Source of the DNA: Pseudonocardia sp. SCN 73-27
GTDB taxonomy: Bacteria > Actinomycetota > Actinomycetes > Mycobacteriales > Pseudonocardiaceae
Direction: 5' to 3'
Length of the DNA: 64,000 nt
Assembly (NCBI GenBank): GCA_001725415.1
Contig: MEGH01000010.1
Coordinates: 51,677 to 115,676 of the forward strand
In this document: positions 36,443 through 54,647 of the stretch, one piece after another
Layout of the letters: every line of letters begins with the position of its first letter
How positions within the stretch are numbered: position 1 is the stretch's first letter
Made by a program: the position numbers and the translations under genes
The notes under the pieces: model-generated
Databases searched by the model: none
The model's input: only the letters and a program-made list of their open reading frames with translations
What the model was told of the DNA's origin: nothing

Positions 36443-37096
36443 ATGACTGACAGGCAGATCACCGGGATCCTGGGCAAGAAGCTCGGGATGACCCAGGTAT
36501 TCGACGAGAACAACCGGGTCGTCCCGGTCACCGTGGTCCAGGCCGGACCCAACGTGGTGACCCAGATCCGAACCCAGGAGACCGACGGCTACGTCGCCGT
36601 CCAGCTGGCCTACGGCGCGGTCGACCCGCGCCGGGTGAACAAGCCCGAGACGGGCCACTTCGCCAAGGCCGGCGTCACGCCGCGGCGCTACACCGTCGAG
36701 CTGCGCACGACCGACGCGGGCGAGTACTCGCTCGGCCAGGAGATCACCGCCGAGGCCTTCGAGGCCGGCGCCCTGGTCGATGTCGTCGGCACCAGCAAGG
36801 GCAAGGGCTACGCCGGTGTCATGAAGCGGCACAACTTCAAGGGCCTCGGCGCCAGCCACGGCACCCAGCGCAAGCACCGCTCGCCGGGTTCCATCGGCGG
36901 CTGCGCGACCCCGGGTCGTGTCTTCAAGGGCCTGCGGATGGCCGGTCGCATGGGTTCGGTGCGCGTCACCACCCAGAGCCTGACCGTCCACCGGGTCGAC
37001 GCCGAGCGCGGCCTGCTGCTGATCAAGGGCGCTGTGCCCGGTCCGCGCGGCGGCCTCGTCGTCGTCAAGACGGCCGCGAAGGGTGGTGTGCAGTAA
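36443..37096 (+). CDS. rplC: 50S ribosomal protein L3
   Basis: The 217-residue L3 is an early 23S rRNA-binding assembly protein reaching toward the peptidyl transferase centre. [31 protein letters not shown] and the loop [12 protein letters not shown] are standard. The stop overlaps the rplD start by one base. Confidence 0.97.
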
Positions 37097-38031
37097 TGAC
37101 TTCCTCTGGGACCTCGGTCGAGGTCAAGAACGCCGAGGGCAAGGCTGACGGCAACGTCGACCTGCCCGGCCACGTCTTCGACGTGACGGCGAACATCCCG
37201 CTGATGCACCAGGTCGTCGTGGCCCAGCAGGCCGCGGCCCGCCAGGGCACGCACAGCACCAAGACCCGCGGCGAGGTCCGCGGCGGTGGGCGCAAGCCGT
37301 ACCGCCAGAAGGGCACCGGCCGCGCCCGTCAGGGCTCGGTGCGCGCGCCGCAGTTCACCGGTGGTGGCGTCGTCCACGGCCCCACACCGCGCGACTACTC
37401 GCAGCGGACCCCGAAGAAGATGAAGGCCGCCGCCCTGCGTGGCGCCCTCTCCGACCGGGCCCGTGGCGGTCGCGTGCACGTGGTGTCCGGCCTCGTCGGT
37501 GGGGACACCCCGTCGACCAAGGCTGCGCGCCAGGCCCTCGAGGCCGTCGTCGGCGCCGAGTCGCGCGGCGTTCTCGTCGTCGTCGGCCGCGACGACTCGG
37601 TGAACCTGTTGAGCCTGCGCAACCTGCCGCAGGTGCACCTCATCGCCCCCGACCAGCTCAACACGTACGACGTGCTGGTCAACGACGACGTCGTGTTCAC
37701 GTCGGAGTCGCTCGAGGCGTTCCTCGCCGGCCCGGTCGCGGCCGCGCCGTCGAAGCGTCGCGCCGCGAAGATCGGCCTGCTGAAGGCCGCGTCCGGTGAC
37801 GCCGCCCCGCACGGATCGGGCAGCCACGCGCCGCTCGACGACGTGTCGGTCGCGCCCGAGGGATTCCCGATCAAGGGCAACGAGGACTCGAAGCTGTACC
37901 ACGTGCCGGGCTCCGCCTTCTACGACCGCACGGTCGCCGAGGTGTGGTTCGCCACCGCGGCTGACGCCGAGGCCGCGGGCTTCGCTCTGCCGCCGTCACA
38001 GCGCAAGGTCGCTGAGGAGGAGAGCAAGTGA
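37096..38031 (+). CDS. rplD: 50S ribosomal protein L4 with a fused C-terminal module
   Basis: Residues ~1-230 are a normal L4, with the exit-tunnel loop [19 protein letters not shown] (64-82). At 311 residues the protein is about 85-95 longer than usual. Residues 242-304 form a separate module ([38 protein letters not shown]) that recurs at the end of L17 in this window, 46/63 identical by hand alignment. The module resembles the sunset-domain pattern found in actinobacterial proteins. L4 binds 23S rRNA and shapes the tunnel; the module's role is unknown. The stop overlaps rplW by 4 bp. Confidence 0.95.
37819..38007 (+). repeat. Coding segment for the L4 copy of the shared module
   Basis: Codons 242-304 of rplD. 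The amino acid sequence is strongly similar to rplQ codons 166-228 (54316-54504), including the linker GSHAPLDD. At nucleotide level several blocks are near-identical, for example around TTCTACGACCGCAC in both. Confidence 0.9.
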
Positions 38032-38327
38032 TCGCCGATCCGCGCGACATCCTGCTCGCGCCGGTGGTGTCGGAGAAGAGCTACGGGCTGCTCGACGAGC
38101 GCCAGTACACCTTCGTCGTCCGCCCGGACGCGAACAAGACCGAGATCAAGATCGCCGTGGAGAAGGTGTTCGGGGTCAAGGTGCTCAGCGTCAACACGCT
38201 GAACCGCCCGGGCAAGCGCAAGCGCTCCCGCACCGGCTACGGCAAGCGCAAGGACACCAAGCGCGCGATCGTCACGCTGTCCGAGGACAGCAAGGCGATC
38301 GACGTGTTCGGCGGCCGGGCGAGCTGA
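38028..38327 (+). CDS. rplW: 50S ribosomal protein L23
   Basis: The 99-residue protein sits at the polypeptide exit and docks trigger factor and SRP in other bacteria. [20 protein letters not shown] and the basic [19 protein letters not shown] loop are standard. GTG 38028 overlaps the rplD TGA; GAGGAGGAGAG upstream lies inside rplD. Confidence 0.97.
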
Positions 38328-38343
38328 GGGAGCGAGCAGACCC

Positions 38344-39177
38344 ATGGGCATCCGCAAGTACAAGCCGACGACCCCCGGTCGTCGTGGTTCGAGCGTCTCG
38401 GACTTCGCCGAGATCACCCGCTCGACGCCGGAGAAGTCGCTGCTGCGTCCCCTGCACAACAAGGGTGGCCGCAACGCGCACGGCAAGGTGACCGCCCGCC
38501 ACCAGGGCGGCGGCCACAAGCGTGCGTACCGGCTGATCGACTTCCGTCGCAACGACAAGGACGGCGTGCCGGCCAAGGTCGCGCACATCGAGTACGACCC
38601 CAACCGGACCTCGCGCATCGCGCTGCTGCACTACGCGGACGGCGAGAAGCGCTACATCCTCGCGCCGGCGAAGCTCAAGCAGGGCGACGTCGTCGAGGCG
38701 GGGCCGAAGTCCGACATCAAGGTCGGCAACAACCTGCCGCTGCGCAACATCCCGACCGGCACCGTGGTGCACGCGATCGAGCTCCGCCCCGGCGGCGGCG
38801 CGAAGATCGCCCGCTCCGCGGGGTCGAGCGTGCAGCTGGTCGCCAAGGACGGGCCCTACGCGCAGCTGCGCATGCCGTCCGGTGAGATCCGCAACGTCGA
38901 CGTGCGCTGCCGCGCCACCATCGGCGAGGTGGGCAACAGCGAGCACTCCAACATCAACTGGGGCAAGGCCGGCCGCATGCGGTGGAAGGGCAAGCGCCCG
39001 ACCGTCCGCGGTGTCGCCATGAACCCGGTCGACCACCCGCACGGTGGTGGTGAGGGCAAGACCTCCGGTGGTCGCCACCCGGTCAACCCCAACGGCAAGC
39101 CCGAGGGGCGTACCCGCCGCACCAAGCCGTCCGACAAGTTGATCGTCCGCCGGCGCCGTACCGGCAAGAAGCGCTGA
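38344..39177 (+). CDS. rplB: 50S ribosomal protein L2
   Basis: The 277-residue L2 is needed for subunit association and peptidyl transferase centre assembly. It has [19 protein letters not shown] and the C-terminal [19 protein letters not shown] with its conserved histidine. It starts 16 bp after rplW. Confidence 0.98.
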
Positions 39178-39193
39178 GCAGGGAGGTAAAGAC

Positions 39194-39475
39194 ATGCCGC
39201 GCAGCCTGAAGAAGGGCCCGTTCGTGGACGACCACCTGCTCAAGAAGGTGGACGCGCTCAACGAGTCGGGCAAGAAGACCGTCATCCGGACCTGGTCCCG
39301 GCGGTCCACGATCATCCCCGACATGATCGGCCACACGATTGCGGTGCACGACGGCCGCAAGCACGTGCCGGTGTTCGTGTCGGACGCGATGGTCGGCCAC
39401 AAGCTGGGGGAGTTCGCGCCCACGCGGACCTTCCGTGGCCACATCAAGGACGACCGCAAAGCGCGTCGGCGCTGA
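39194..39475 (+). CDS. rpsS: 30S ribosomal protein S19
   Basis: The 93-residue 30S head protein begins [19 protein letters not shown] and has [26 protein letters not shown] precedes the ATG. Spaced 16 bp after rplB. Confidence 0.98.
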
Positions 39476-39510
39476 GCGGCCCGAGTAGCGACTAGGAGAG
39501 GTGGAGAGAC

Positions 39511-40760
<1,250 letters not shown>

Positions 40761-40763
40761 GCC

Positions 40764-41183
40764 ATGCTGATCCCGCGCAAGGTGAAGCACCGCAAGCAGC
40801 ACCGGCCGCACCGCACCGGCGCCTCGACGGGCGGGACCCGGGTCACCTTCGGTGACTACGGCATCCAGGCCCTCGAGCCCGCCTACGTGACGAACCGGCA
40901 GATCGAGTCCGCCCGTATCGCCATCAACCGGCACATCCGCCGTGGTGGCAAGGTGTGGATCAACGTCTTCCCGGACCGGCCGCTGACCAAGAAGCCCGCC
41001 GAGACCCGCATGGGTTCCGGTAAGGGCTCGCCGGAGAAGTGGGTGACCAACGTGAAGCCCGGACGGGTGCTCTTCGAGATGAGCTTCCCGAACGAGCAGA
41101 CGGCTCGTGAGGCGCTGCGTCGCGCCATCCACAAGCTGCCCATGAAGTGCCGGATCGTGACCCGCGAGGGTGGTGACATCTGA
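40764..41183 (+). CDS. rplP: 50S ribosomal protein L16
   Basis: The 139-residue protein lies beside the A-site tRNA elbow and helps complete the peptidyl transferase centre. [19 protein letters not shown] and [13 protein letters not shown] are standard. It follows rpsC by 3 bp and overlaps rpmC by one base. Confidence 0.98.
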
Positions 41184-41425
41184 TGGCCTCCGCGGGTACC
41201 ACCGCTGCCGAGCTGCGCGAGCTGACCGACGAGGAGCTCGTGCTGCGCGTCAAGGAGTCCAAGGAGGAGCTGTTCAACCTCCGATTCCAGATGGCGACCG
41301 GGCAGCTGGACAACAACCGGCGGCTGCGGACCGTCCGCCACGACATCGCGCGCATCTACACGGTGATGCGCGAGCGTGAGCTGGGCCTGTCCGTCGCCCC
41401 GACCGACAACGAGGGCGCAGCATGA
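41183..41425 (+). CDS. rpmC: 50S ribosomal protein L29
   Basis: The 80-residue exit-site protein, an antiparallel helical hairpin: [20 protein letters not shown], then [13 protein letters not shown]. The stop overlaps the rpsQ start by 4 bp. Confidence 0.96.
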
Positions 41426-41694
41426 GCGAGGAGAACGCCACGCAGCGCGGGGAGCGCAAGGTCCGCGAGGGACTCGTCGTGTCCGACAAGATGGACAAGA
41501 CGATCGTCGTCTCGCTCGAGGACCGCGTGAAGCACCCGCTCTACGGCAAGGTCATCCGGCGGACGAGCAAGGTCAAGGCGCACGACGAGGCCAACACGGC
41601 CGGCGTCGGCGACCGCGTCCGCCTGATGGAGACCCGACCGCTGTCCGCCACGAAGCGCTGGCGCCTGGTCGAGATCCTGGAGAAGGCGAAGTGA
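41422..41694 (+). CDS. rpsQ: 30S ribosomal protein S17
   Basis: The 90-residue OB-fold protein binds 16S rRNA early in assembly. [20 protein letters not shown] and the [19 protein letters not shown] loop are standard. ATG 41422 overlaps rpmC and the TGA overlaps rplN. Confidence 0.97.
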
Positions 41695-42059
41695 TCCAGC
41701 AGGAGTCGCGTCTGCGCGTCGCCGACAACACCGGTGCCAAGGAAATCCTGTGCATCCGGGTGCTCGGCGGCTCCGGCCGACGCTACGCGGGGATCGGCGA
41801 CATCATCGTCGCCACGGTGAAGGAAGCCATCCCGGGCGCCGGGGTGAAGCGCGGTGACGTCGTCAAGGCCGTCATCGTCCGCACCGTCAAGGAACGGCGC
41901 CGACCGGATGGTTCCTACATCCGTTTCGACGAGAACGCCGCCGTGCTGATCAAGCCGGACGGCGAGCCGCGAGGGACTCGCATCTTCGGGCCCGTCGGTC
42001 GCGAGCTGCGCGACAAGCGGTTCATGAAGATCATCTCCCTCGCGCCGGAGGTGCTGTGA
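41691..42059 (+). CDS. rplN: 50S ribosomal protein L14
   Basis: The 122-residue intersubunit-bridge protein starts at GTG 41691 ([19 protein letters not shown]), the family's usual N-terminus, overlapping rpsQ by 4 bp. The end [12 protein letters not shown] is standard. In many bacteria this is the first gene of the spc operon; here it is continuous with S10. Confidence 0.97.
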
Positions 42060-42061
42060 GC

Positions 42062-42391
42062 ATGAAGGTCAAGAAGGGCGACACCGTCGTGGTGATCGCC
42101 GGCAAGGACAAGGGTGCGCGGGGCAAGGTCATCCAGGCCTATCCCGACCGCGACCGCGTCCTCGTCGAGGGCGTCAACAGGATCAAGAAGCACACGCGCG
42201 TCAGCCAGAACCAGCGCGGCGCGCAATCCGGCGGCATCGTGACGCAGGAGGCCGCCATCCACGTCTCGAACGTGATGGTCGTCGACTCCGACGGCAAGCC
42301 GACCCGCGTCGGCAAGAAGGTCGTCGAGTCCGAGGACGGCGGCAAGGCCAAGCGCGTCCGGATCTCCCGCCGCACCGGGAAGGAGATCTGA
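42062..42391 (+). CDS. rplX: 50S ribosomal protein L24
   Basis: The 109-residue assembly-initiating protein contains the KOW motif [23 protein letters not shown] 42062 is chosen over GTG 42056 because GGAGGTG (42047-42053) is then 8 nt away instead of 2. rplE follows after 1 bp. Confidence 0.96.
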
Positions 42392-42392
42392 C

Positions 42393-42956
42393 ATGACGAC
42401 CGCCGAGAAGGTGGCGCCGCGCCTCAAGCAGCGCTACCGCGACGAGATCAAGGGCGAGCTGCGCGAGCAGTTCTCCTACTCGAACGTCATGCAGATCCCG
42501 GGCGTCGTCAAGGTCGTCGTGAACATGGGTGTCGGCGACGCCGCCCGTGACGCGAAGCTGATCGACGGTGCCGTCCGCGACCTGGCCGCGATCACCGGCC
42601 AGCGTCCGCAGGTCCGTCGCGCCACGAAGTCGATCGCACAGTTCAAGCTGCGCGAGGGCATGCCGATCGGCGCGAAGGTCACGCTGCGGGGCGACCGGAT
42701 GTGGGAGTTCCTCGACCGTCTGCTGACGATCGCGCTGCCCCGTATCCGCGACTTCCGCGGGCTGTCGGCCACACAGTTCGACGGTCGGGGCAACTACACC
42801 TTCGGTCTCACGGAGCAGTCGATGTTCCACGAGATCGACCCCGACTCGATCGACCGTCCGCGCGGCATGGACATCACGGTCGTGACGACGGCGACCACCG
42901 ACGAGGAAGGCCGGGAGCTGCTGCGCAAGCTCGGCTTCCCCTTCAAGGAGAGCTGA
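42393..42956 (+). CDS. rplE: 50S ribosomal protein L5
   Basis: The 187-residue 5S rRNA-binding protein contacts the P-site t[43 protein letters not shown] and [20 protein letters not shown] are standard. AAGGAGATCTGAC precedes the ATG. Confidence 0.98.
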
Positions 42957-42961
42957 CCCGC

Positions 42962-43147
42962 ATGGCCAAGAAGGCACTGCGAATCAAGGCGGAGAAGACG
43001 CCGAAGTTCAAGGTCCGCGGCTACACGCGCTGCCAGAAGTGCGGGCGCCCGCGTGCAGTCCTGCGGAAGTTCGGCCTCTGCCGCGTCTGCGTGCGCCAGA
43101 TGGCGCACGCCGGCGAGCTGCCGGGCGTGAGCAAGTCCAGCTGGTAA
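42962..43147 (+). CDS. rpsN: 30S ribosomal protein S14, zinc-binding type
   Basis: The 61-residue short S14 carries two CxxC pairs (CQKC and CRVC) that bind zinc. Standard [20 protein letters not shown]. Zinc-independent paralogues often exist elsewhere under zinc control. It lies 5 bp after rplE. Its stop codon falls in the loop/stem boundary of a terminator-like hairpin. Confidence 0.97.
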
Positions 43148-43165
43148 TCACCAGCTGCTTTTCCT
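43138..43165 (+). terminator. Terminator-like hairpin inside the spc operon (rpsN/rpsH)
   Basis: CAGCTGGT (43138-43145) pairs with ACCAGCTG (43150-43157), an 8-bp stem with a 4-nt loop, followed by CTTTTCCT. The hairpin overlaps the rpsN stop and precedes the 88-bp rpsN-rpsH gap, unusually long for this operon. It may be an attenuator. Confidence 0.55.
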
Positions 43166-43235
43166 GATCGCCACAGGCCCCGCACGCGTCCAGTCATCTG
43201 GGCCGGGGGGAACCAGGGCGGGAAAGTAGTACGCC

Positions 43236-43634
43236 ATGACGATGACCGATCCGATCGCAGACATGTTGACCCGTCTGCGGAACGCGAACTCGGCATATCA
43301 CGACCAGGTCGTGATGCCGCACTCCAAGTTGAAGGTCGCCATTGCGGAGATCCTTCAGAAGGAGGGCTACATCGCGTCGCACCACACCGAGGACGCCGAG
43401 GTCGGCAAGTCTCTCGTGGTCGAGCTCAAGTACGGCCGCAACCGCGAGCGCAGCATCGCCGGTGTGCGCCGGGTCTCCAAGCCCGGCCTGCGGGTCTACG
43501 CGAAGTCCAACAACCTGCCGCGGGTCCTCGGAGGCCTCGGCGTCGCGATCATCTCGACGTCGAAGGGTCTCCTGACGGACCGTCAGGCCAATCGGGACGG
43601 CGTGGGTGGGGAAGTCCTCGCCTACGTCTGGTGA
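43236..43634 (+). CDS. rpsH: 30S ribosomal protein S8
   Basis: The 132-residue protein binds central-domain 16S rRNA and autoregulates spc translation in E. coli. [18 protein letters not shown] and the end [11 protein letters not shown] are standard. Its position after the only long gap in this cluster fits a control point. Confidence 0.98.
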
Positions 43635-43650
43635 GAAGGGAGAAGTAGCG

Positions 43651-44190
43651 ATGTCGCGCATCGGGAAACTGCCGATCACCGTTCCGTCGGGCGTCGACGT
43701 GGCCATCGAGGGCCGCACCGTCACGGTCAAGGGGCCCAAGGGCACCCTGTCGCACACCGTGATCGAGCCGATCAGCGTCGAGCGTGGTGACGACGGCGCA
43801 GTGGTCGTGAAGCGTCCGGACGACGAGCGGAAGTCGAAGGCCTACCACGGCCTCACCCGCACACTCGTCAACAATCTCGTCATCGGCGTCACCGCCGGTT
43901 ACGAGAAGAAGCTCGAGATCGTCGGTGTCGGTTACCGCGTCGCGCTGAAGGGGTCGAACCTCGAGTTCGCGCTCGGCTTCAGCCACCCGGTCGTCGTCAC
44001 GCCGCCCGCGGGCATCACCTTCGCCGTCGAGTCGCCCACCAAGTTCTCGGTGGCGGGCATCGACAAGCAGCTCGTCGGCGAGACCGCCGCGAACATCCGC
44101 AAGATCCGCAAGCCGGAGCCGTACAAGGGCAAGGGTGTGCGGTACGCGGGCGAGGTCGTCCGCCGCAAGGTCGGAAAGACGGGTAAGTGA
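43651..44190 (+). CDS. rplF: 50S ribosomal protein L6
   Basis: The 179-residue protein near the factor-binding site has [17 protein letters not shown] and [21 protein letters not shown] 43651 has AAGGGAGAAGTAG upstream; an in-frame start at 43606 is inside rpsH and unlikely. It overlaps rplR by one base. Confidence 0.98.
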
Positions 44191-44600
44191 TGGCTCAGAC
44201 AGAGACGATCTCGGCCAACGCCAAGAAGCGCGCCGCGTCGAACATCTCCAGCACCCGGCGGGTGGCGCGCACGCGTCGCCACGCGCGGCTGCGGAAGAAG
44301 ATCCACGGCACGGCGAACCGTCCCCGGCTCGCGGTCAAGCGCAGCTCGCGGCACATGTTCGTGCAGCTGATCGACGACCTGGCCGGCCACACGCTGGCGT
44401 CGGCCTCGACCCTCGACGCCGACGTGGCGTCGCTGGAGGGCGACAAGAAGGCCAAGGCGGCCAAGGTGGGCGAGCTCATCGCGGCCCGCGCCAAGGCCGC
44501 CGGTGTCGACGCGGTCGTCTTCGACCACGGCGGCAACGGCTACCACGGCCGGATCGCAGCTCTGGCCGACGCCGCCCGCGAGGGCGGGCTGGAGTTCTGA
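44190..44600 (+). CDS. rplR: 50S ribosomal protein L18
   Basis: The 136-residue 5S rRNA-binding protein has an Ala/Arg-rich N-terminal extension before the conserved [20 protein letters not shown]. The tail [19 protein letters not shown] is standard. ATG 44190 is taken; GTG 44187 is also in frame. Confidence 0.97.
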
Positions 44601-44631
44601 TGACCATGAAGCACACTGAAGGGAACGTCTG

Positions 44632-45267
44632 ATGCCGGGACGTACGCGGCGTGACGGCGGAGGCCCCGGTGGCGGCAGCGGCGACAACCGCGACCGCCGG
44701 GACCGCCGCGACGGAGGCCGTGGCGGGGCGGCCCAGGACAAGACCCCGTACATCGAGCGGCTGGTCACGATCAACCGTGTGGCCAAGGTCGTCAAGGGTG
44801 GTCGGCGCTTCAGCTTCACCGCGCTGATGATCGTGGGCGACGGCGACGGCCTCGTGGGCGTCGGCTACGGCAAGGCCAAGGAGGTCCCGGCGGCGATCGC
44901 CAAGGGTGTCGAGGAGGCGAAGAAGAACTTCTTCCGCGTCCCCCGCATCGGCGGCACGATCGTCCACCGGGTCCAGGGCGAGGCGGCCGCGGGCGTGGTC
45001 ATGTTGCGCCCCGCGAGCCCCGGTACCGGTGTCATCGCCGGTGGCCCGGTCCGCGCGGTCCTGGAGTGCGCCGGCATCCACGACATCCTGTCGAAGTCGC
45101 TCGGCAGCGACAACGCGATCAACGTCGTCCACGCGACGATCGCGGCGCTCAAGATGATCCAGCGTCCGGAGGAGGTCGCGGCCCGCCGTGGCCTGCCGCT
45201 GGAGGACGTCGCCCCGGCCGCCATGCTCCGTGCGCGCGCCGAGGCCGCCGCGGCTGCGAGGGTGTGA
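44632..45267 (+). CDS. rpsE: 30S ribosomal protein S5
   Basis: The 211-residue fidelity protein has a ~38-residue Gly/Arg/Asp-rich N-terminal extension, then [20 protein letters not shown] and [20 protein letters not shown]. The spectinomycin-loop region is wild type. The stop overlaps rpmD. Confidence 0.97.
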
Positions 45268-45464
45268 GCGACGTGGCCGACAAGAAGCTGAAGGTCACGC
45301 AGGTCCGCAGCGCCATCGGGCGTAAGCAGAACCAGCGCGAGACCCTGAAGTCCCTCGGGCTTCGCAAGATCCGTCAGTCCGCGGAGTGGGACGACAACCC
45401 CCAGGTCCGCGGCATGATCAACACCGTACGGCACCTCGTGACGGTGGAGGAGGTCGGTTCCTGA
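45264..45464 (+). CDS. rpmD: 50S ribosomal protein L30
   Basis: The 66-residue protein has [20 protein letters not shown] and [17 protein letters not shown] 45264 overlaps rpsE by 4 bp; GTG 45273 (VADKKLK) is an alternative with better spacing from GAGGGT. It overlaps rplO by one base. Confidence 0.95.
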
Positions 45465-45913
45465 TGACCGAGTCCATCAAGATCCACGACCTGCGTCCCG
45501 CGCCCGGCGCCAAGACCGCGAAGACCCGTGTCGGTCGTGGTGAGGGCAGCAAGGGCAAGACCGCGGGCCGCGGTACCAAGGGCACCAAGGCGCGCAAGAC
45601 GGTCTCCCCGGCCTTCGAGGGCGGGCAGATGCCGCTGCACATGCGGCTGCCCAAGCTCAAGGGCTTCAAGAACCGCTTCCGCGTCGAGTACCAGGTCGTG
45701 AACGTCGGCGACCTCGCGGTGCTCTTCCCGGAGGGTGGCGAGGTCGGCCCGGCCGAGCTCGTCGCCGCCGGTGCGGTGCGCCGCAACGAGCTCGTCAAGG
45801 TGCTCGGCACCGGGGAGCTCGACGGTGTCGCGCTCACCGTGACCGCGCACAAGTTCTCCGGCAGTGCCAAGGAGAAGATCGTCGCAGCCGGCGGGACCGC
45901 CACCGAGCTGTGA
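45464..45913 (+). CDS. rplO: 50S ribosomal protein L15
   Basis: The 149-residue late-assembly protein has [20 protein letters not shown] and [32 protein letters not shown] upstream lies inside rpmD. It ends the L14-L15 run; a 234-bp gap separates it from secY. Confidence 0.98.
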
Positions 45914-45963
45914 GCTGGCCGACGCCGCTCGTTCCCTCATCGTCCCCGTCGAGTACGGGGCGC

Positions 45964-45994
45964 GGGAACGGGCGGCGTCGCCGCTGTTAGAGTC
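45964..45994 (+). promoter_or_regulatory. Possible stress-sigma-type promoter before secY
   Basis: GGGAAC (45964-45969), 16-bp spacer, GTTAGAG (45986-45992). The pattern resembles GGAAC...GTT promoters of ECF sigma factors, with spacing at the short end. TTAGAG could alternatively be a weak housekeeping -10. Confidence 0.3.
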
Positions 45995-46147
45995 GCTCGC
46001 GTCCGCCACTCGCACCTGCGGTGTGCGGACGCCGGGTCGTAGCCGGCCGTCTCGGCCCCCGTGCGGGGCCCGGCGCCGCAGGCCCCACCAGCAGCCGGTG
46101 AAGCCGGCCACCGGCGGTCCGCCGCCGACGTAGTAGGAGGGGCCCGA

Positions 46148-47458
46148 GTGCTCAGCGCGTTCCGGTCAGCACTGACGACGCCAGACCTACGGAAGAAGAT
46201 CCTCTTCACGCTGGGTGTCGTCGCGGTCTACCGCCTGGGGGCGAACATCCCGTCGCCCGGGGTGTCCTTCCCGAACGTCCAGCAGTGCATCGCCGCCGTC
46301 GAGGGCGGCGCGAACTCGGGCGTCTACTCGCTCATCAACCTCTTCTCGGGCGGCGCGCTCCTGCAGCTGTCGATCCTCGCGCTCGGGATCATGCCGTACA
46401 TCACGGCCAGCATCATCGTCCAGCTGCTCACCGTCGTCATCCCGCGGTTCGAGCAGCTGAAGAAGGAAGGGCAGTCGGGTCAGGCCAAGCTGACCCAGTA
46501 CACCCGCTACCTCACGATCGCCCTGGCGATCCTGCAGGCCACGGGCATCGTGGCCCTCGCGGTGCGCGGTGTGCTGTTCCAGGGCTGCAACGTCCCGGTC
46601 ATCCCGGACCAGAGCATCTTCACGCTCGCCGTCATGGTCATCGTGATGACCGCCGGCTGCGCCATCGTCATGTGGCTGGGTGAGCAGGTCACCGAACGCG
46701 GCATCGGCAACGGCATGTCGCTGCTGATCTTCGCCTCGATCGCGCACCGCATCCCGGCCGAGGGCAAGAACATCCTCGACAACTCCGGCGGCCTGGTGTT
46801 CGCCGGTGTCTGCGTGTTCGGCCTGGCCATCATCGCGAGCGTCGTGTTCGTCGAGCAGGGCCAGCGGCGCATCCCCGTGCAGTACGCCAAGCGCATGGTG
46901 GGCCGCCGCATGTACGGCGGCACGTCGACGTACCTGCCGCTCAAGGTCAACCAGGCCGGTGTCATCCCGGTGATCTTCGGCAGCTCGCTGCTGTATCTGC
47001 CCAGCCTGATCGCGCAGCTCGCGGGCAGCGGCGACAGCTGGTTCCAGCGCTTCGTGCAGACCTATCTCGTCGACCAGTCGAACTGGTTGCACATCGTGTT
47101 GTACGTAGCACTGATCATCTTCTTCACGTACTTCTACGTCGGCATCACGTTCAGCCCCGAGGAGCGGGCCGACGAGATGAAGAAGTTCGGCGGCTTCATC
47201 CCGGGCATCCGCCCGGGCAGGCCGACGGCCGAGTACCTCAACTTCGTGCTCTCCCGCATCACGCTGCCGGGATCGCTGTACCTGGGCATCATCGCGGTGC
47301 TGCCGAACTTCTTCCTCGGCGTCACCGGCAGTGGCCAGAACCAGAACTTCCCGTTCGGTGGTACGGCCGTGCTGATCATGGTCGGCGTGGGCCTCGACAC
47401 CGTGAAGCAGATCGAGAGCCAGCTCATGCAGCGGAACTACGAGGGTTTCCTGCGTTAA
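46148..47458 (+). CDS. secY: Protein translocase subunit SecY
   Basis: The 436-residue channel protein of the Sec translocon has about ten membrane helices, including [20 protein letters not shown] and the cytoplasmic loop [21 protein letters not shown] that contacts the ribosome and SecA. GTG 46148 has AGGAGGGGC upstream and matches the family N-terminus ([18 protein letters not shown]). Confidence 0.98.
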
Positions 47459-47586
47459 GGTGCGATGGACGGCAGTCGGCGCGGCGCGTCACCCGCAGCC
47501 GCACGCTGCCCCGTCCCGCCGCTCGCCGCACCCCGCCGGCGACTTCGGCACCACCGCGATCGTGTTCTCAGGGAGGTTGGTTTCGC

Positions 47587-48135
47587 GTGCGACTCGTTCT
47601 GGTCGGTCCGCCGGGGGCGGGCAAGGGTACTCAGGCTGTGCGGATCGCCGAGCAGCTCGGCATCCCGCACATCTCCACCGGTGACCTGTTCCGGGCCAAC
47701 CTCGCCGAGGAGACCCCGCTGGGGCTCGAGGCGAAGGGCTACATGGACGCGGGCAACCTCGTCCCCGACTCGGTGACCGTCGGCATGGTCAAGGCGCGCC
47801 TGGCCGACCCCGACGCGGCCAAGGGCTTCCTTCTCGACGGGTTCCCGCGCACCACGTCGCAGGCCGACGCGCTCGGCGAGATCCTGTCGGAGAGCGGCGA
47901 CGAGCTCGACGCCGTCGTGGAGCTGCAGGTCTCCGAGGACGTCGTCGTCGAGCGGCTGCTCGCGCGCGGCCGCTCCGACGACACCGAGGCCGTCATCCGC
48001 AACCGGCAGCAGGTCTACCGCGACGAGACCGCGCCGCTGCTCGACTACTACCGCGACCGGCTCGTCACCGTGGACGCCGTCGGCGAGGTCGCCGAGATCA
48101 CCGACCGGGTGTTCGCGGCCCTGCCCGAGAGATGA
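47587..48135 (+). CDS. adk: Adenylate kinase
   Basis: The 182-residue enzyme interconverts ATP, AMP and ADP. P-loop GPPGAGKGT has K13; [10 protein letters not shown] and DGFPRTTSQ bind AMP. It is the short form without the zinc lid, normal for actinobacteria. GTG 47587 has GGGAGGTTGG upstream; 128 bp after secY, a usual arrangement. Confidence 0.97.
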
Positions 48136-48197
48136 CACGGTCGGAGCGCTGAGTCCCGCTTCGGCGGCGGCGCCACGAGTTTCCAAGGAGCGCGTCG

Positions 48198-49022
48198 ATG
48201 AACGGCGGCAGAGGCGGGGTGCGGGGTGCGTTGGCCCGTTTCCGTGGACGTGACATCGAGCTGAAGACGCCGGGTGAGATCGAGGCCATGCGGGTGGCGG
48301 GGATCCTCGTCGCCCGCACCCTCGCCGCGGTGCGCGCGCTCGCCGCACCCGGCGTCAGCACCGCCGACCTCGACGCGCTGGCCGAGACGACGATCCGCGA
48401 GGGCAACGGGGTGCCGTCGTTCCTCGGCTACCACGGCTACCCGGCGTCGATCTGCGCGTCGGTGAACGACCAGATCGTCCACGGCATCCCGTCGGCTGCG
48501 CAGGTGCTGGCCGAGGGCGACATCATCTCCGTCGACTGCGGCGCGGTCGTCGAGGGCTGGCACGGCGACTCGGCGGTCACGCTGGAGATCGGCGCCGTGT
48601 CCGAGGCCGACCACCAGCTGTCGGTGGCGTGCGAGGAGTCGCTGTACGCGGGGATCGCCGCGGCGCTGCCCGGTGGCCGCCTCACCGACATCTCGCACGC
48701 GGTGCAGAACGCTGTCGAGAAGGCCGCGAACCGCGACCGGGCCGACTACGGGATCGTCGCGGAGTACGGCGGCCACGGCATCGGCACGTCGATGCACATG
48801 GACCCGTTCCTGCCCAACTACGGCGACCCGGGCCACGGCGTGAGGCTGCGCCCGGGCGTGGTGCTGGCCATCGAGCCGATGATCACGGCCGGCGAGCCGG
48901 AGACCCGGGAGCTCGAGGACGGCTGGACCGTCGTCACGGCCGACGGGAAGCGGGCGGTGCACTGGGAGCACACGGTGGCGATCACCGACGACGGCCCGCG
49001 GGTGCTGACGGCCGCACCCTGA
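48198..49022 (+). CDS. map: Methionine aminopeptidase type I
   Basis: The 274-residue enzyme removes initiator methionine. The five metal ligands are visible: D113, D124, H193, E226 and E257. CCAAGGAGCGCGTCG precedes the ATG. It is 62 bp after adk. The next gene on the plus strand, infA, is 1.7 kb away because an exporter gene intervenes. Confidence 0.97.
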
Positions 49023-49026
49023 CCAT

Positions 49027-50394
49027 TCAGGGCGCGCCGACCTCGTCGCCCGCGTGCTCGTCTGCCGTGCCTTCCGAGGCGGGCGCCGCCGGGGGAGCGG
49101 TGTCGAGCGGGTGGGCGAGCTCGTCGCGGTCGAGCCGCCAGCCGACGACGGCCGCCACCGCGAGCAGCACCGGCACGGTCCCGGCGAGCAGGAACGTCAG
49201 CGGGATGCCGACCCACTCGCCGATCGGCCCGGCCAACGCCATCGACACGGGCATCAGGGCGAGCGAGACGAAGAAGTCGAGGCTCGACACCCGGCCCAGC
49301 AGGTGCGGCGGCACGCGCCGCTGCAGCAGCGTCCCCCAGATGACCATCGCGCCGGCGCTCGTGACGCCGACGGCGAACGCGATGACGACCATGACCAACA
49401 GCAGGTTCGTCAGCCCGATGAAGGCGAGCGGGACGCCGCCGATGCCCCAGGCCAGGATCATCACCGTCAGGTAGCGGCGTGGGAGCCGGATCGACGACGT
49501 CGCGATCGACCCGACGGCGCTGCCGATCCCGAAGGCACCGAGCACGAGGGCGTACTCGCTGGGGCCGCCGCCGGTCTGGTCGCGGACCGCGAACGGCAGC
49601 AGCACCTCGATCGGTCCGATGACGACGAGCACGTACAGCGACGAGAACGCGAGCGTCGCGAAGAGCCAGCCGGTGCGCAGCAGGTAGGCGAAGCCCTCGC
49701 GGACGTCGGCGAGCACGGACGGGCGCCCGTCCGTGCCGACGGGGTCACCGGGAGGGGTGCGGTCGATCGCGGGGGTCCGGCGCATCGCCAGCAGGGGCGG
49801 CAGCGCGAGGCAGAAGCCGATCGTAGCGGCGAGCAGCCCGGCGGCGGGGAACAGCGCCCCGACGACGAGCCCTGCGACCGCGGGCCCGGCCGCCTGCACG
49901 GCGACCGGCCGCAGCGTGCCCTCGACACCGTTGGCGGCCAGCAGCTCGTCGGCCGGCAGCAACGAGGGCAGGATCGCCGACGCGGACGGATAGTAGAAGG
50001 CGTCGGCCGTGCCGAGCAGGAACGCGACGACCGCGAGGTGCCAGAGCGCGAGAGTTCCGGTGAGCGCGAGCGTCGCCGCCACGGCCGCCGACGCGATGCG
50101 CACGGTCTCGACGGCGCCCAGTACACGTCGGCGGGGGAGCCGGTCGGCGGCCACCCCGCCCGCGAGCACGCTCAACAGCAGGCCGGCGCTGCCCGCCGCG
50201 GCGACCAGCGACAGCTGACTCGGGCCGCCGCCCAGCTCGATGACCTGCCAGACGATCGCGACCAGCCAGATGCCCGTCGCGAACAGGGAGAACAGCATCG
50301 ACGACGCCAGCAGCCGGTACTCGCGGTGGCGGAACGGCCGCAGTGCCCGGGGGAGGCGGGTAGGGCCGGGTGCGGCGTCGTGACGGATCTCCAC
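49027..50394 (-). CDS. MFS exporter (drug/siderophore-type, 12 TM)
   Basis: The 455-residue major-facilitator protein has about twelve hydrophobic helices and the loop-2/3 motif [18 protein letters not shown]. Pattern and length fit the EntS/macrolide-exporter-like group, but the substrate is unknown. It converges on map with a 4-bp gap and is divergent from infA, interrupting the common map-infA order. GTG 50394 is the start; the promoter prediction places the RNA start at about the same base, so the mRNA may be leaderless. Confidence 0.85.
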
Positions 50395-50400
50395 ATCGGG

Positions 50401-50431
50401 ATGCGACCACCTCGACCCGGGTCCAGGTCAA
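50401..50431 (-). promoter_or_regulatory. MerR-type promoter/operator of the MFS exporter
   Basis: On the minus strand TTGACC (50431-50426), 19-bp spacer, TCGCAT (50406-50401). A 20-bp dyad lies at 50409-50428 (ACCTCGACCC and GGGTCCAGGT, 9 of 10 positions symmetric). An over-long spacer filled by a dyad is the hallmark of MerR/SoxR-family activation. No merR gene is visible in the window. Confidence 0.5.
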
Positions 50432-50514
50432 GTGAATTGTCCGTTCCGGCAGGGATGTGGCGGGGCCGGTCCCGCGCGCGTGTACCCGACTGTGAAGGCC
50501 CTCCGCAAGACCCG

Positions 50515-50520
50515 TACACT
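50515..50520 (+). promoter_or_regulatory. Possible -10 element of the infA promoter
   Basis: TACACT at 50515-50520 is a good -10; TGTGAA at 50491-50496 with an 18-bp spacer is a poor -35. It would give a ~175-nt leader for the infA-rplQ operon. Confidence 0.4.
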
Positions 50521-50700
50521 GGTTGTTCGGCGCGTTGGATGCGCCGGTTCCGTCGTGCCTCCCGCATGTCGCCTCCGGTGTCCCTCGTGCCCACCGGACG
50601 CGGTGACCGCAGCCAGAAATTCCTGTCGGCGGTCGTTGCCGTCCGCAGCACCACCTGTCAGATGCACGTCGTACGCACGACCTCACGGAACGCGGAGGAC

Positions 50701-50922
50701 ATGGCCAAGAAAGACGGGGCGATCGAGGTCGAGGGCCGGGTCGTCGAACCCCTGCCGAACGCGATGTTCCGCGTGGAGCTGGAGAACGGGCACAAGGTCC
50801 TGGCTCACATCAGCGGGAAGATGCGGCAGCACTACATCCGGATCCTCCCGGAGGACCGGGTGGTCGTGGAGCTCTCACCCTACGACCTGTCCCGCGGCCG
50901 AATCGTCTACCGCTACAAGTGA
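50701..50922 (+). CDS. infA: Translation initiation factor IF-1
   Basis: The 73-residue OB-fold protein blocks the A site during initiation. [20 protein letters not shown] and RGRIVYRYK are standard. ATG 50701 has ACGCGGAGGAC upstream. First gene of the alpha-operon run. Confidence 0.97.
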
Positions 50923-50956
50923 TCGCCCGCTCCACCGGAACAAGAAGGCAGAAGAC

Positions 50957-51070
50957 GTGAAGGTCAAGCCGAGCGTCAAGCCGATCTGCGACAAGTGCAA
51001 GGTGATCCGCCGTCACGGCCGGGTCATGGTGATCTGCGAGAACCTGCGCCACAAGCAGCGCCAGGGCTGA
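50957..51070 (+). CDS. rpmJ: 50S ribosomal protein L36, zinc type
   Basis: The 37-residue protein starts at GTG 50957 ([20 protein letters not shown]). Zinc ligands are C11, C14, C27 and a C-terminal His (RHKQRQG). It is 34 bp after infA. Confidence 0.97.
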
Positions 51071-51163
51071 GCAGCACCGGCACGTCGCGGTCGTCTCGAC
51101 CGCAGCTCTCACGAGCGTAAGAAGCACCCGACGCACCTGTCGCGCCACACGGGCGCGGCCCAC

Positions 51164-51183
51164 CCCCGGCCCCCAGGCCGGGG
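51164..51183 (+). other. Hairpin in the rpsM leader
   Basis: CCCCGGCC (51164-51171) and GGCCGGGG (51176-51183) form an 8-bp stem in the 185-bp rpmJ-rpsM gap. It could be part of an S4-type translational control element, but this cannot be claimed from sequence alone. Confidence 0.35.
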
Positions 51184-51255
51184 CCCGGACCACGAGTCGG
51201 ACCGGGGCGGACGTCGGGCAGACCTGGGGATCAGAACAGAGGAGAACACCGCCGC

Positions 51256-51636
51256 ATGGCACGACTCGCAGGCGTCGACCTCCCCCGCGACAAGCGGATG
51301 GAGATCGCGCTCACCTACATCTTCGGGATCGGGCGTACCCGGTCGCTGGAGATCCTGAACGCCACGGGTATCAGCAAGGACCTCCGGTCGAAGGACCTGA
51401 CCGACGAGGACCTGTCCGCCCTGCGCGAGTACATCGAGGCCAACTTCCGCGTCGAGGGTGACCTCCGCCGCGAGGTGCAGGCCGACATCCGCCGCAAGAT
51501 CGAGATCGGCTGCTACCAGGGGATCCGGCACCGCCGGGGCCTGCCGGTGCGTGGCCAGCGCACCAAGACCAATGCCCGCGGCCGCAAGGGACCGAAGAAG
51601 ACGGTCGCCGGCAAGAAGAAGGCAGGTAAGAAGTAA
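51256..51636 (+). CDS. rpsM: 30S ribosomal protein S13
   Basis: The 126-residue head protein contacts the P-site tRNA and 50[41 protein letters not shown] and the Lys-rich tail are standard. GAGGAGAACACC precedes the ATG. It overlaps rpsK by one base. Confidence 0.98.
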
Positions 51637-52043
51637 TGCCGCCCCGTACCCGTGGCGCGGCCGGACCGAAGAAGGTCCGCCGCAAGGAGAAGAAGAACGT
51701 CGCGCACGGCCACGCGCACATCAAGTCGACGTTCAACAACACCATCGTGTCCATCACTGACCCGACCGGTGCCGTGATCGCGTGGGCCTCCGCCGGCCAC
51801 GTCGGTTTCAAGGGCTCCCGCAAGTCGACGCCGTTCGCGGCGCAGATGGCCGCGGAGAACGCCGCCCGCAAGGCCGCCGAGCACGGCATGAAGAAGGTCG
51901 ACGTGTTCGTCAAGGGCCCCGGCTCCGGTCGTGAGACCGCGATCCGTTCGCTGCAGGCCGCCGGACTCGAGGTCGGCACCATCAGCGACGTGACCCCCCA
52001 GCCGCACAATGGGTGCCGCCCGCCCAAGCGGCGCCGGGTCTAA
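51636..52043 (+). CDS. rpsK: 30S ribosomal protein S11
   Basis: The 135-residue platform protein has [20 protein letters not shown] and the end [18 protein letters not shown] with its conserved asparagine. ATG 51636 overlaps the rpsM stop. Confidence 0.98.
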
Positions 52044-52063
52044 GGGAGAGGGAGTAACCAGAC

Positions 52064-52669
52064 ATGGCTCGTTACACCGGACCCATGACCCGCAAGTCCC
52101 GCCGACTGAAGGTCGACCTCGTCGGCGGCGACCAGGCGTTCGAGCGCCGTCCCTACCCGCCCGGCCAGCACGGCCGGATCCGGATCAAGGAGACGGAGTA
52201 CCTCCTGCAGATGCAGGAGAAGCAGAAGGCGCGCTTCGCCTACGGCGTTCTGGAGAAGCAGTTCCGCCGCTACTACGAGGAAGCCAACCGGCGTCCCGGT
52301 AAGACCGGTGACAACCTGCTGCAGATCCTCGAGTCGCGGCTCGACAACGTCGTCTACCGGGCGGGCCTCGCGCGCACCCGGCGGATGGCCCGTCAGCTGG
52401 TGAACCACGGTCACTTCCTGGTCAACGGCCAGAAGGTGAACATCCCCAGCTTCCGCGTCGGCCAGTACGACATCATCGACGTCAAGCCGAAGTCGCTGGG
52501 CACCGACCCGTTCGTGATCGCCAAGGAGCTCGTCGGCGACCGTCCGGTCCCGGCCTGGCTCCAGGTCGTCCCGTCGAACCTGCGCATCCTCGTGCACCAG
52601 CTGCCCGAGCGCGCGCAGATCGACACCCAGGTCACCGAGCAGCTGATCGTCGAGCTCTACTCGAAGTAA
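52064..52669 (+). CDS. rpsD: 30S ribosomal protein S4
   Basis: The 201-residue assembly initiator has the S4 RNA-binding domain (LESRLDNVVYRAGLARTRRM). It lacks the N-terminal zinc cysteines of some S4 proteins. AGGGAGAGGGAG precedes the ATG. Confidence 0.98.
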   Translation: MARYTGPMTRKSRRLKVDLVGGDQAFERRPYPPGQHGRIRIKETEYLLQMQEKQKARFAYGVLEKQFRRYYEEANRRPGKTGDNLLQILESRLDNVVYRAGLARTRRMARQLVNHGHFLVNGQKVNIPSFRVGQYDIIDVKPKSLGTDPFVIAKELVGDRPVPAWLQVVPSNLRILVHQLPERAQIDTQVTEQLIVELYSK

Positions 52670-52695
52670 GGCTGTATTCCCCCTCGTCAGAGGGT

Positions 52696-52722
52696 CCCCC
52701 CGCCCTGAAGTGGGGCGGGGGG
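52696..52722 (+). terminator. GC hairpin between rpsD and rpoA
   Basis: CCCCCCGCCC (52696-52705) pairs with GGGCGGGGGG (52713-52722), a 10-bp all-GC stem with a 7-nt loop. A small CCCTC/GAGGG stem-loop (52681-52694) precedes it. It may tune rpoA expression relative to the ribosomal genes. Confidence 0.6.
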
Positions 52723-52774
52723 CTCACTGCGGCATCAAATAGTGGTTGCCGCGGCATACACAAGGAGAATCACT

Positions 52775-53818
52775 GTGCTGATCTCTCAGCGCCCCACCCT
52801 GACCGAGGACTCGGTCACCGAGACCCGGTCGCGGTTCGTCATCGAGCCGCTCGAGCCCGGCTTCGGCTACACGCTCGGCAACTCGCTCCGCCGGACCCTG
52901 CTGTCCTCCATCCCCGGCGCGGCCGTGACCAGCATCCGCATCGACGGCGTGCTGCACGAGTTCACCACCGTCCCCGGGGTCAAGGAGGACGTCACCGACA
53001 TCATCCTGAACCTCAAGGAGCTCGTCGTGAGCTCCGAGGAGGACGAGCCGGTGACGATGTACCTGCGCAAGCAGGGCCCCGGCCCGGTCACCGCCGGCGA
53101 CATCGTGCCCCCGGCCGGTGTCACCGTGCACAACCCGGACCTGCACATCGCCACCCTGAACGACAAGGGCCGCCTCGAGGTGGAGCTCGTCGTCGAGCGG
53201 GGCCGCGGCTACGTGCCGGCCATGCAGAACAAGGCCACCGGCGCCGAGATCGGCCGCATCCCGGTCGACTCGATCTACTCGCCGGTCCTGAAGGTGACCT
53301 ACAAGGTCGAGGCCACCCGTGTCGAGCAGCGCACCGACTTCGACAAGCTGGTGCTGGACGTCGAGACGAAGCCGTCGATCACCCCGCGCGACGCGCTCGC
53401 GTCGGCAGGCAAGACCCTCGTCGAGCTGTTCGGCCTCGCCCGCGAGCTGAACGTCGACGCCGAGGGCATCGAGATCGGCCCGTCGCCGCAGGAGGCCGAC
53501 ACCATCGCGGCCTTCGCGATGCCGATCGAGGAGCTCGACCTCACGGTCCGCTCCTACAACTGCCTCAAGCGCGAGGGCATCCACACCGTGGGTGAGCTGG
53601 TGGGCCGGTCCGAGGCCGACCTGCTCGACATCCGCAACTTCGGCGCCAAGTCGATCGACGAGGTCAAGATGAAGCTCGTCGGCCTCGGCCTCGCGCTGAA
53701 GGACAGCCCGCCCGGATTCGACCCGTCGGCCGCGGCCGTCGAGTACGGCTCCGACGGGTTCGACCCCGACAACTTCGGGGACGACGGTCAGGACTACGCA
53801 GAAACGGAGCAGCTGTAG
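52775..53818 (+). CDS. rpoA: RNA polymerase alpha subunit
   Basis: The 347-residue alpha subunit has a dimerising N-terminal domain ([20 protein letters not shown]), a linker and a C-terminal DNA-binding domain ([20 protein letters not shown]). GTG 52775 has AAGGAG 7 nt upstream; an in-frame start at 52742 gives an atypical extension. The acidic C-terminal tail is typical of actinobacteria. rplQ follows after 2 bp. Confidence 0.98.
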
Positions 53819-53820
53819 CC

Positions 53821-54588
53821 ATGCCTCAGCCCACCAAGGGTCCCCGCCTCGGCGGTTCGCCCGCGCACCAGAGGCTGATCCTGGCCAACCTGGCCACGCA
53901 GCTGTTCGAGCACGGTCGCATCACCACCACCGAGGCCAAGGCCCGGCGGCTGCGTCCGTACGCGGAGCGCCTGATCACCAAGGCCAAGAAGGGCGACCTG
54001 CACAACATCCGGCAGATCGCCAAGGTGATCCGGGACAAGGACGTCATCCACCGTCTCGTCACCGACATCGGCCCGTTCTTCGCCGACCGCAACGGCGGCT
54101 ACACCCGCATCACCAAGACGCTGCCGCGCAAGGGCGACAACGCCCCCATGGCCGTGATCGAGCTGGTGTCGCAGAAGACGGTCACCGACGAGGCCGACCG
54201 CGCCCGTCGCGTCGCGGCGTCGCAGAACAAGGCCGAGGACAAGGTCCAGGCCGCTGCGGCTGCTCCGGCGTCGGAGGAGCCCGCAGCCGAGGAGTCGACC
54301 GCGCCGTACGGCGAGGGCAGCCACGCCCCGCTGGACGACCCGCAGGAGGCCCCCGAGGGCTTCCCGGTCAAGGGCAACGCCGACTCGATGCTGTACCACC
54401 TCCCCGGGACGTCGTTCTACGACCGCACCGTGGCCGAGGTCTGGTTCACCGACGCGGTCACCGCCGAGGCCGCGGGCTTCTCGCTGCCGAAGTCGCAGCA
54501 GGAGCTCGAGGAGGACGCCGACGCGTCCGTCGAGAAGGCCGAGGCCGACGCTGAGGCCGACGCCGGCGACGCCAAGGGCGACGCCTGA
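53821..54588 (+). CDS. rplQ: 50S ribosomal protein L17 with a fused C-terminal module
   Basis: Residues 1-~120 are standard L17 ([20 protein letters not shown], then [20 protein letters not shown]). At 255 residues the protein is about twice the core length. After an Ala/Glu-rich linker (~135-163), residues 166-228 are the module also found at the end of L4 ([38 protein letters not shown]). An acidic Asp/Glu/Ala tail follows. L17 lies near the tunnel exit on 50S; the module's function is unknown. Confidence 0.95.
54316..54504 (+). repeat. Coding segment for the L17 copy of the shared module
   Basis: Codons 166-228 of rplQ, 46/63 identical in protein to codons 242-304 of rplD by hand alignment. 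Conserved positions cluster in [18 protein letters not shown] and AEAAGF. Confidence 0.9.
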
Positions 54589-54604
54589 GCATCACCCCGC
54601 ACCA

Positions 54605-54642
54605 CGACGAGCCCGCCGCCCACCCGGACGGCGGGCTCGTCG
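54605..54642 (+). terminator. Terminator-like hairpin after rplQ
   Basis: A 14-bp stem, 54605-54618 with 54629-54642 and a 10-nt loop, begins 17 nt after the rplQ stop and ends 5 nt before the truA start. It would limit read-through into truA or sequester its initiation region. Confidence 0.7.
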
Positions 54643-54647
54643 CCGTC

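What the first reader, a model, noticed from the sequence alone, without database searches (positions are those of the whole stretch)
37819..54504. A shared C-terminal module on ribosomal proteins L4 and L17
rplD (module 37819-38007) and rplQ (54316-54504) both end in a ~63-residue module: GSHAPLDD linker, [24 protein letters not shown]. Hand alignment gives 46/63 identities, far above any relation between L4 and L17 cores. L4 is ~311 residues and L17 ~255, each about 90-130 longer than the conserved core. The module resembles the sunset-domain pattern seen in actinobacterial proteins. Both L4 and L17 belong to 50S, so the ribosome would display two copies of one surface module. This suggests a docking site for a shared partner (hibernation factor, nascent-chain factor, RNase or membrane anchor) or a zinc/nucleic-acid-binding patch. 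The function is inference; the duplication is directly visible.
Basis: partly seen in the sequence, partly recalled or inferred. Interest (0 to 1): 0.85.

Follow-up and report, generated by a model that had tools for sequence, protein, structure and literature searches.

The report
Sunset domains on ribosomal L4 and L17
Two ribosomal proteins of a soil actinobacterium end in copies of the same small, already catalogued add-on domain of unknown function that keeps being copied onto the tail ends of unrelated proteins; it probably serves as a docking knob on a flexible tether, but nobody has shown what it binds.

Summary
In detail: the C-terminal 63-residue stretches of uL4 and bL17 match at 46/63 positions; BLASTP 50/72, E 7e-35. 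The module is NCBIfam's "sunset" domain (NF051437), and both proteins pass the cut-offs of "50S L4 / L17, sunset domain variant". The kind is known, though I found no paper on it. The genome is a Pseudonocardia. Of 62 congeners both genes carry it in 27, only L17 in 22, only L4 in 1, neither in 9; 3 are unresolved. The window's two copies group with their own host genes, so they are not a recent duplication; in another genome rplD and rplQ share a 245/252-nt cassette. In 143 of 143 ORFs (130 distinct) the module ends within 28 residues of the C-terminus. Added here: profile evidence that it is a zinc-less relative of the Ada metal-binding domain, and capture by uL22. Best mechanism: a ligand-binding docking knob on a flexible tether, ligand unknown. 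Zinc binding is not supported.

The parts
37096..38031 (+). rplD, ribosomal protein uL4, 311 aa, sunset variant
   Evidence: NF051449 50S_L4_sunset 430.3 bits, cut-off 385; Pfam Ribosomal_L4 at residues 21-208
37732..37818 (+). linker between L4 core and module (29 residues, Ala-rich, net charge +4)
   Evidence: identity falls to 17-64% in 11 of 14 relatives in which core and module hold 73-88% (in the 3 closest it is 86-97%); charge
37819..38007 (+). C-terminal module of L4 (63 residues); the sunset HMM match is 37870-37986
   Evidence: fold model
38008..38028 (+). short tail after the module, 7 residues before the stop
53821..54588 (+). rplQ, ribosomal protein bL17, 255 aa, sunset variant
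   Evidence: NF051448 50S_L17_sunset 350.1 bits, cut-off 280; Pfam Ribosomal_L17 at residues 21-116
54175..54315 (+). linker between L17 core and module (47 residues, Ala/Glu-rich, net charge -4)
54316..54504 (+). C-terminal module of L17 (63 residues); the sunset HMM match is 54367-54483
54505..54585 (+). acidic tail after the module (27 residues before the stop)

Best explanation
Both tails end in a sunset domain, a small C-terminal module that spreads between unrelated proteins, mainly in Actinomycetota. Shown: what it is, that it sits at the C-terminus, that it hangs on a variable linker, and that in L4 it is conserved like the core. Supported by profiles but not by structure: it is a zinc-less relative of the metal-binding domain of Ada. 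Inferred: it works as a folded ligand- or partner-binding knob at the end of a flexible tether on the solvent side of the 50S subunit, near the polypeptide exit side, recruiting the same kind of ligand that other sunset carriers recognise. It is an accessory that is present or absent between close relatives, not part of ribosome mechanics. My confidence: sunset identity 0.97, Ada kinship 0.65 (lowered from 0.7 after the ribosomal-only control), docking mechanism about 0.45; the number below is for the whole.
For: Identity: NF051437, NF051449 and NF051448 over cut-off. Flexible tether: the C. acnes uL4 extension is solvent-exposed without density (PMC10085706, passages), and that chain carries the module (8crx_e, E 8.6e-13). 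Selection: against 14 relatives the L4 module keeps 74-100% identity, the core 73-97% and the linker 17-97%; module dN/dS is 0-0.53. Placement: 143 of 143 ORFs (130 distinct) have the last module within 28 residues of the C-terminus. Avidity-like arrays: 2, 3 or 4 modules in one protein, including a bL17 with two. Site: in M. smegmatis L17, L22 and L29 are said to surround the tunnel exit, and extra density there was ascribed to L4/L17/L22/L29 extra domains (PMC3286452, passages); L4, L17 and L22 are among the hosts. Ada kinship: hhalign score 27.2 over 49 columns against 9.5 +/- 2.3 for column-shuffled Ada profiles, 0 of 200 as high; without the nuclease-type and viral rows 26.4 over 42 columns, 0 of 100; one nuclease tail passes the cut-offs of both sunset (42.9, cut-off 27) and Ada_Zn_binding (23.6, cut-off 23).
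Against: No ligand or partner is identified. In 16 of the 27 class-sample genomes with a ribosomal copy no non-ribosomal copy was found, so a partner that itself bears the module is not required. The L17 module is less constrained than its core (71-86% against 75-99% in the 14 of 15 relatives other than the near-identical L090; dN/dS up to 1.26), which fits weak constraint. With ribosomal-host modules alone the Ada alignment shrinks to 15 columns (score 24.6, still above 100 of 100 shuffles). Foldseek found no PDB match with E under 0.001, and Ada-named viral models appear only at E 2.9 and 3.5. Pfam gives no Ada match to the window modules at E 10.
Confidence: 0.5

Rival explanations
1. Folded C-terminal cap: the module only protects long disordered tails from proteases that start at a C-terminus, and binds nothing.
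For: C-terminal in 143 of 143 ORFs; hosts that look cytosolic, membrane-bound and secreted share only a linker before it (by eye).
Against: Tandem arrays of 2-4 modules put copies inside proteins; 27 further residues, acidic, follow the module in this L17; congeners do without the module.
Confidence: 0.22
2. Nucleic-acid-binding accessory, as one might expect of an Ada relative: it touches rRNA, mRNA or DNA near the ribosome.
For: Kinship with Ada; outside Actinomycetota the module is found in plasmid genes annotated thermonuclease and endonuclease/exonuclease/phosphatase (40 of 82 records listed), C-terminal in the one of each that I opened, and in a protein that looks ComEC-like with a metallo-beta-lactamase fold (by eye).
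Against: Ribosomal copies are net acidic, mean -3.5 for 56 ORFs (range -9 to 2), while 11 Cys-type secreted copies average +2.3 (range -1 to 7); no zinc ligand set.
Confidence: 0.15
3. Near-neutral mobile extension: a module copied onto gene ends by recombination and tolerated because the tail hangs free.
For: Patchy distribution, host switches on the module tree, recent 245/252-nt cassette shared by rplD and rplQ in one genome, weak constraint in L17.
Against: The L4 module is held as well as the L4 core while its linker is not; K19, G20, N21, S24, Y27, H28, Y35, E41, F44, A50 and G54 are invariant in the 59 rows of A2.
Confidence: 0.15

Closest known systems
NCBIfam NF051449 / NF051448: 50S ribosomal protein L4 / L17, sunset domain variant
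   Same: Same core, same C-terminal module; both window proteins over the curated cut-offs
   Different: No difference seen; the window adds one more genome in which both occur together
NCBIfam NF051451 (30S S2), NF051450 (50S L20) and NF051433 (ArfC) sunset variants
   Same: The module part of these models matches both window proteins
   Different: Other host proteins; ArfC is named a channel accessory protein (its membrane role is recalled, not tested)
uL4 of Cutibacterium acnes 70S (PDB 8crx, 8cvm and others)
   Same: Solved ribosome whose L4 carries the module, E 8.6e-13
   Different: The tail has no density (PMC10085706, passages); the search with the L17 module found no ribosomal chain other than this L4
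Pfam PF02805 Ada_Zn_binding
   Same: Colinear profile alignment over 49 columns, 0 of 200 shuffles as high; an intermediate tail passes both families
   Different: Window modules lack the Cys ligands and do not match PF02805 at E 10

Membership tests
NF051437 sunset domain | profile score over the curated cut-off of 27 bits | tested here: met
   77.6 bits (L4) and 67.8 bits (L17)
NF051437 sunset domain | C-terminal position (inferred from hosts, not from the family text, which I did not see) | tested here: met
   8 residues (L4) and 28 residues (L17) after the module match; 143 of 143 ORFs at most 28
NF051449 50S_L4_sunset / NF051448 50S_L17_sunset | whole-protein score over 385 / 280 bits | tested here: met
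   430.3 and 350.1
PF02805 Ada_Zn_binding | score over Pfam gathering cut-off | tested here: not met
   no match of either module at E 10
PF02805 Ada_Zn_binding | four Cys zinc ligands | tested here: not met
   0 Cys in either module; aligned positions are His28, Ser32, Pro58, Gln61 (my reading of the alignment)
PF02805 Ada_Zn_binding | common fold | tested here: inconclusive
   hhalign positive; PDB Foldseek nothing under E 0.001; two viral Ada-named models only at E 2.9 and 3.5
Docking/adapter module | a binding partner | not testable with these tools
   needs pull-down or cross-linking

The most novel reading that the evidence does not exclude
A zinc-less descendant of the Ada metal-binding domain has become a plug-in docking handle that ribosomes acquire again and again on solvent-side proteins, several of them around the polypeptide exit (uL4, bL17, uL22, with bL20 and uS2), by cassette copying between genes of one genome. 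A common cellular partner then reads ribosome-borne and non-ribosomal copies alike.
Probability: 0.2. Interest if true: 0.8.

Novelty: new member of a known kind. Interest (0 to 1): 0.45.

Why it matters
Ribosomal proteins are among the most conserved proteins, so repeated capture of one mobile C-terminal domain by at least five of them (L4, L17, L22 and S2 seen here; L20 by NCBIfam model name) is a natural experiment on how ribosomes gain surface functions. The module has curated names but no known function that I could find. The Ada link gives a first structural hypothesis, and the genus offers near neighbours with both, one or no copy for a direct comparison.

Tried and rejected
Recent duplication or gene conversion in this genome: rejected. 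The window L4 module groups with Pseudonocardia L4 modules and the L17 module with L17 modules, and codon sharing is near expectation. A recent copy does exist elsewhere (G264).

Zinc site: rejected for the window modules (no Cys).

Homotypic tether of ribosomes to the third sunset protein of the same genome (L003): not needed in general, since 16 of 27 class-sample genomes with ribosomal copies show no other carrier. It is not excluded where both exist. That L003 is membrane-anchored is itself unsure: its best 19-residue hydropathy window is only 1.0.

Fold comparison with the PDB: no useful match. The pdb_via library was not available. Promoter/terminator scan of 54200-54800: nothing.

Literature: 'sunset domain' is held by one paper, on library associations; searches found no papers; others (6 papers; 2 papers) listed none whose title or abstract start is about the module; one search listed two, one of them the C. 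acnes ribosome paper. Passages were seen in two papers only.

Errors of mine: the first Ada alignment used minus-strand loci unreversed and was meaningless; it was redone, where one of 30 rows (L155) was dropped by a Cys-pattern filter. L153 was left out of alignment A2 because its segment holds a stop. The strict pattern missed several carriers; one search repeated nine loci with an HMM and one search did all. One search includes one pointless 100-base region. In one search some L4 cores were compared over about 175 of 212 residues because of how the start was trimmed.
Full report
What is there. rplD encodes a 311-residue uL4 and rplQ a 255-residue bL17. The Pfam cores end at residues 208 and 116.

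What it is. NCBIfam release 20.0 contains this as NF051437, 'sunset domain-containing protein' (L4 77.6 bits, L17 67.8 bits, cut-off 27). Both window proteins exceed the cut-offs of 'exception' models made for such proteins, NF051449 (L4, 430.3 against 385) and NF051448 (L17, 350.1 against 280). Further models in the same hit lists are S2, L20 and ArfC sunset variants. Pfam has no model that matches the modules at E 10. So the pattern is known to annotators. In the held library of papers 'sunset domain' occurs in one unrelated paper, and other searches listed nothing on the module (titles and abstract starts only).

Genome and relatives. The L4 module is 100% identical to that of Pseudonocardia sulfidoxydans NBRC 16205, so the window is from Pseudonocardia. 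The genome holds three copies over the cut-off: L4, L17 and a 238-residue protein on another contig (L003/L202). That third protein has a short hydrophobic stretch near its N-terminus by eye, but its best 19-residue hydropathy window is only 1.0, so a membrane anchor is unsure; among the sunset variants it matches ArfC_sunset best, under the cut-off (79 against 100). In 62 genomes of the genus the L4 variant passes its cut-off in 28 and the L17 variant in 49. Joint result: both 27, L17 only 22, L4 only 1, neither 9, unresolved 3. The association (Fisher p 0.013) is not corrected for relatedness. In the family, 89 of 100 genomes carry some sunset domain. In an even draw over the class, 61 of 295 do. 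Hosts in those 61, after reading all hits over the cut-off (loci): L4 in 18 genomes, L17 in 10, S2 in 3, L4 and L17 together in 3. 16 genomes have ribosomal carriers only, 11 both kinds, 34 non-ribosomal only. I had references for L4, L17, S2 and L22 only; I recognised no L20 by eye among the rest.

How the copies move. In a tree of 82 modules (73 columns; 37 of 79 inner branches open) the labels L4 and L17 need 6 changes, and four groups together need 10 against 28.8 for shuffled labels. Window L4 sits with three Pseudonocardia L4 modules (97*), window L17 with eight other L17 modules, all but one named Pseudonocardia (96*). So the pair is not a recent duplication. One Pseudonocardia L4 (L073) falls among L17 modules, without a star, and the other Pseudonocardia L4 modules are not joined into one clade. 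Elsewhere host switches are supported: Psychromicrobium L4 with its own L17 (99*), Nakamurella L4 with a third protein (96*), and Ilumatobacter L4 with Acidimicrobiales L22 (95*); these are SH-aLRT values of a quick tree with long branches and deserve caution. The clearest case is genome G264: rplD and rplQ share an 84-residue linker-plus-module segment with 245 of 252 nucleotides and 79 of 81 codons of identical residues the same, a recent cassette copy. uL22 carries the module in three Acidimicrobiales or unplaced actinobacterial MAGs (L108, L133, L134); the one scanned against NCBIfam meets no L22-sunset model.

Anatomy. All 140 scanned loci gave a module ORF, 143 ORFs in all, 130 distinct by their last 90 residues; the last module always ends within 28 residues of the C-terminus, median 3. 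Tandem arrays of 2, 3 and 4 modules exist, including a bL17 with two. Non-ribosomal hosts, by eye, are single-span membrane proteins with long linkers, secreted repeat proteins and secreted nucleases. Outside the actinobacteria, most of the 82 plasmid records with a match are from Pseudomonas and Rhizobium (40 listed), many annotated thermonuclease or endonuclease/exonuclease/phosphatase; in the one of each that I opened the match ends within 8 codons of the gene's end. Phage G gp605 is little more than the module. AlphaFold2 on 59 aligned modules gives pLDDT 81.9, order beta-beta-alpha-beta-alpha, with a low-confidence first ten residues.

Kinship with Ada. The window modules do not match PF02805. 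But one Pseudomonas nuclease tail passes both the sunset cut-off (42.9 bits) and, narrowly, the Ada_Zn_binding gathering score (23.6, cut-off 23). A profile-profile alignment of 139 sunset and 29 Ada sequences covers 49 columns colinearly, score 27.2, probability 65.5. 200 column-shuffled Ada profiles gave 9.5 +/- 2.3, maximum 16.8, and the reversed profile 6.4. Without the nuclease-type and viral rows the score is 26.4 over 42 columns; with ribosomal hosts alone it is 24.6, but over only 15 columns; 0 of 100 shuffles were as high in either case. In the alignment the four Cys ligands fall on His28, Ser32, Pro58 and Gln61, so zinc binding is not expected; this mapping is my reading. Foldseek against the PDB gave nothing under E 0.001; against viral models phage G gp605 scores probability 1.00 (E 0.034), and two Ada-named models appear at E 2.9 and 3.5. 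I take the kinship as likely, not proven.

Constraint. Against 14 relatives, L4 module identity (74-100%) equals that of the L4 core (73-97%), while the linker ranges from 97% down to 17%; module dN/dS is 0 to 0.53. Against 15 relatives the L17 module is less constrained (71-98% against 75-100% for the core; dN/dS up to 1.26), and the window lineage's L17 module has changed fast: 99% core but 80% module identity to P. dioxanivorans. Ribosomal modules average net charge -3.5 (56 ORFs), Cys-type secreted ones +2.3 (11), others -1.7 (76).

Place on the ribosome. For C. acnes the authors state that the uL4 extension is solvent-exposed, 100 residues longer than in E. coli, and has no density (PMC10085706, passages); that chain carries the module. 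For M. smegmatis L17, L22 and L29 are said to surround the tunnel exit, and extra density there is ascribed to L4/L17/L22/L29 extra domains (PMC3286452, passages); those were not shown to be sunset domains.

Verdict. It is a catalogued domain, not a new kind. The most likely mechanism is a tethered docking knob; a protease cap, a nucleic-acid binder and a near-neutral mobile tail remain open. The host switching, the rplD-rplQ cassette, the uL22 hosts and the Ada link are the parts I did not find described in the searches named above.

Noticed in passing
L202:2430-3146 (G000 contig C25, outside the window): Third sunset protein of this genome: short hydrophobic stretch near the N-terminus by eye (hydropathy weak), an Ala/Glu/Lys repeat, and the module at the C-terminus; it follows an ORF that looks like a photolyase (by eye).
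   Followed up: partly
L197 and L198 (G264): rplD and rplQ of one genome share an 84-codon tail segment at 245 of 252 nucleotides, a recent cassette copy between two ribosomal protein genes.
   Followed up: partly
L192 (G302): A bL17 ending in two tandem sunset modules; membrane-type proteins with three and four modules in L195 and L193.
   Followed up: partly
L108, L133, L134: uL22 proteins of Acidimicrobiales or unplaced actinobacterial MAGs end in a sunset module; no L22 sunset model was hit in NCBIfam for the one scanned.
   Followed up: partly
54316-54504: The L17 module of the window and P. sulfidoxydans has diverged fast: 80% identical to P. dioxanivorans although the L17 core is 99% identical.
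   Followed up: no
L186 (NZ_LR134464.1): A Tsukamurella record labelled plasmid carries infA, rpmJ, rpsM, rpsK, rpsD, an RNA polymerase alpha gene and rplQ, so it is probably a chromosome piece under a plasmid label.
   Followed up: no
49027-50394, - strand: A 455-residue ORF that looks like an MFS transporter (by eye) lies within the ribosomal protein region, facing the other way.
   Followed up: no
L151, L152 and L033: Small lipoprotein-like and secreted nuclease-like carriers have a Cys before KGN and a Cys at the Trp43 position, which suggests a disulfide in exported versions and Trp in cytosolic ones (by eye).
   Followed up: no
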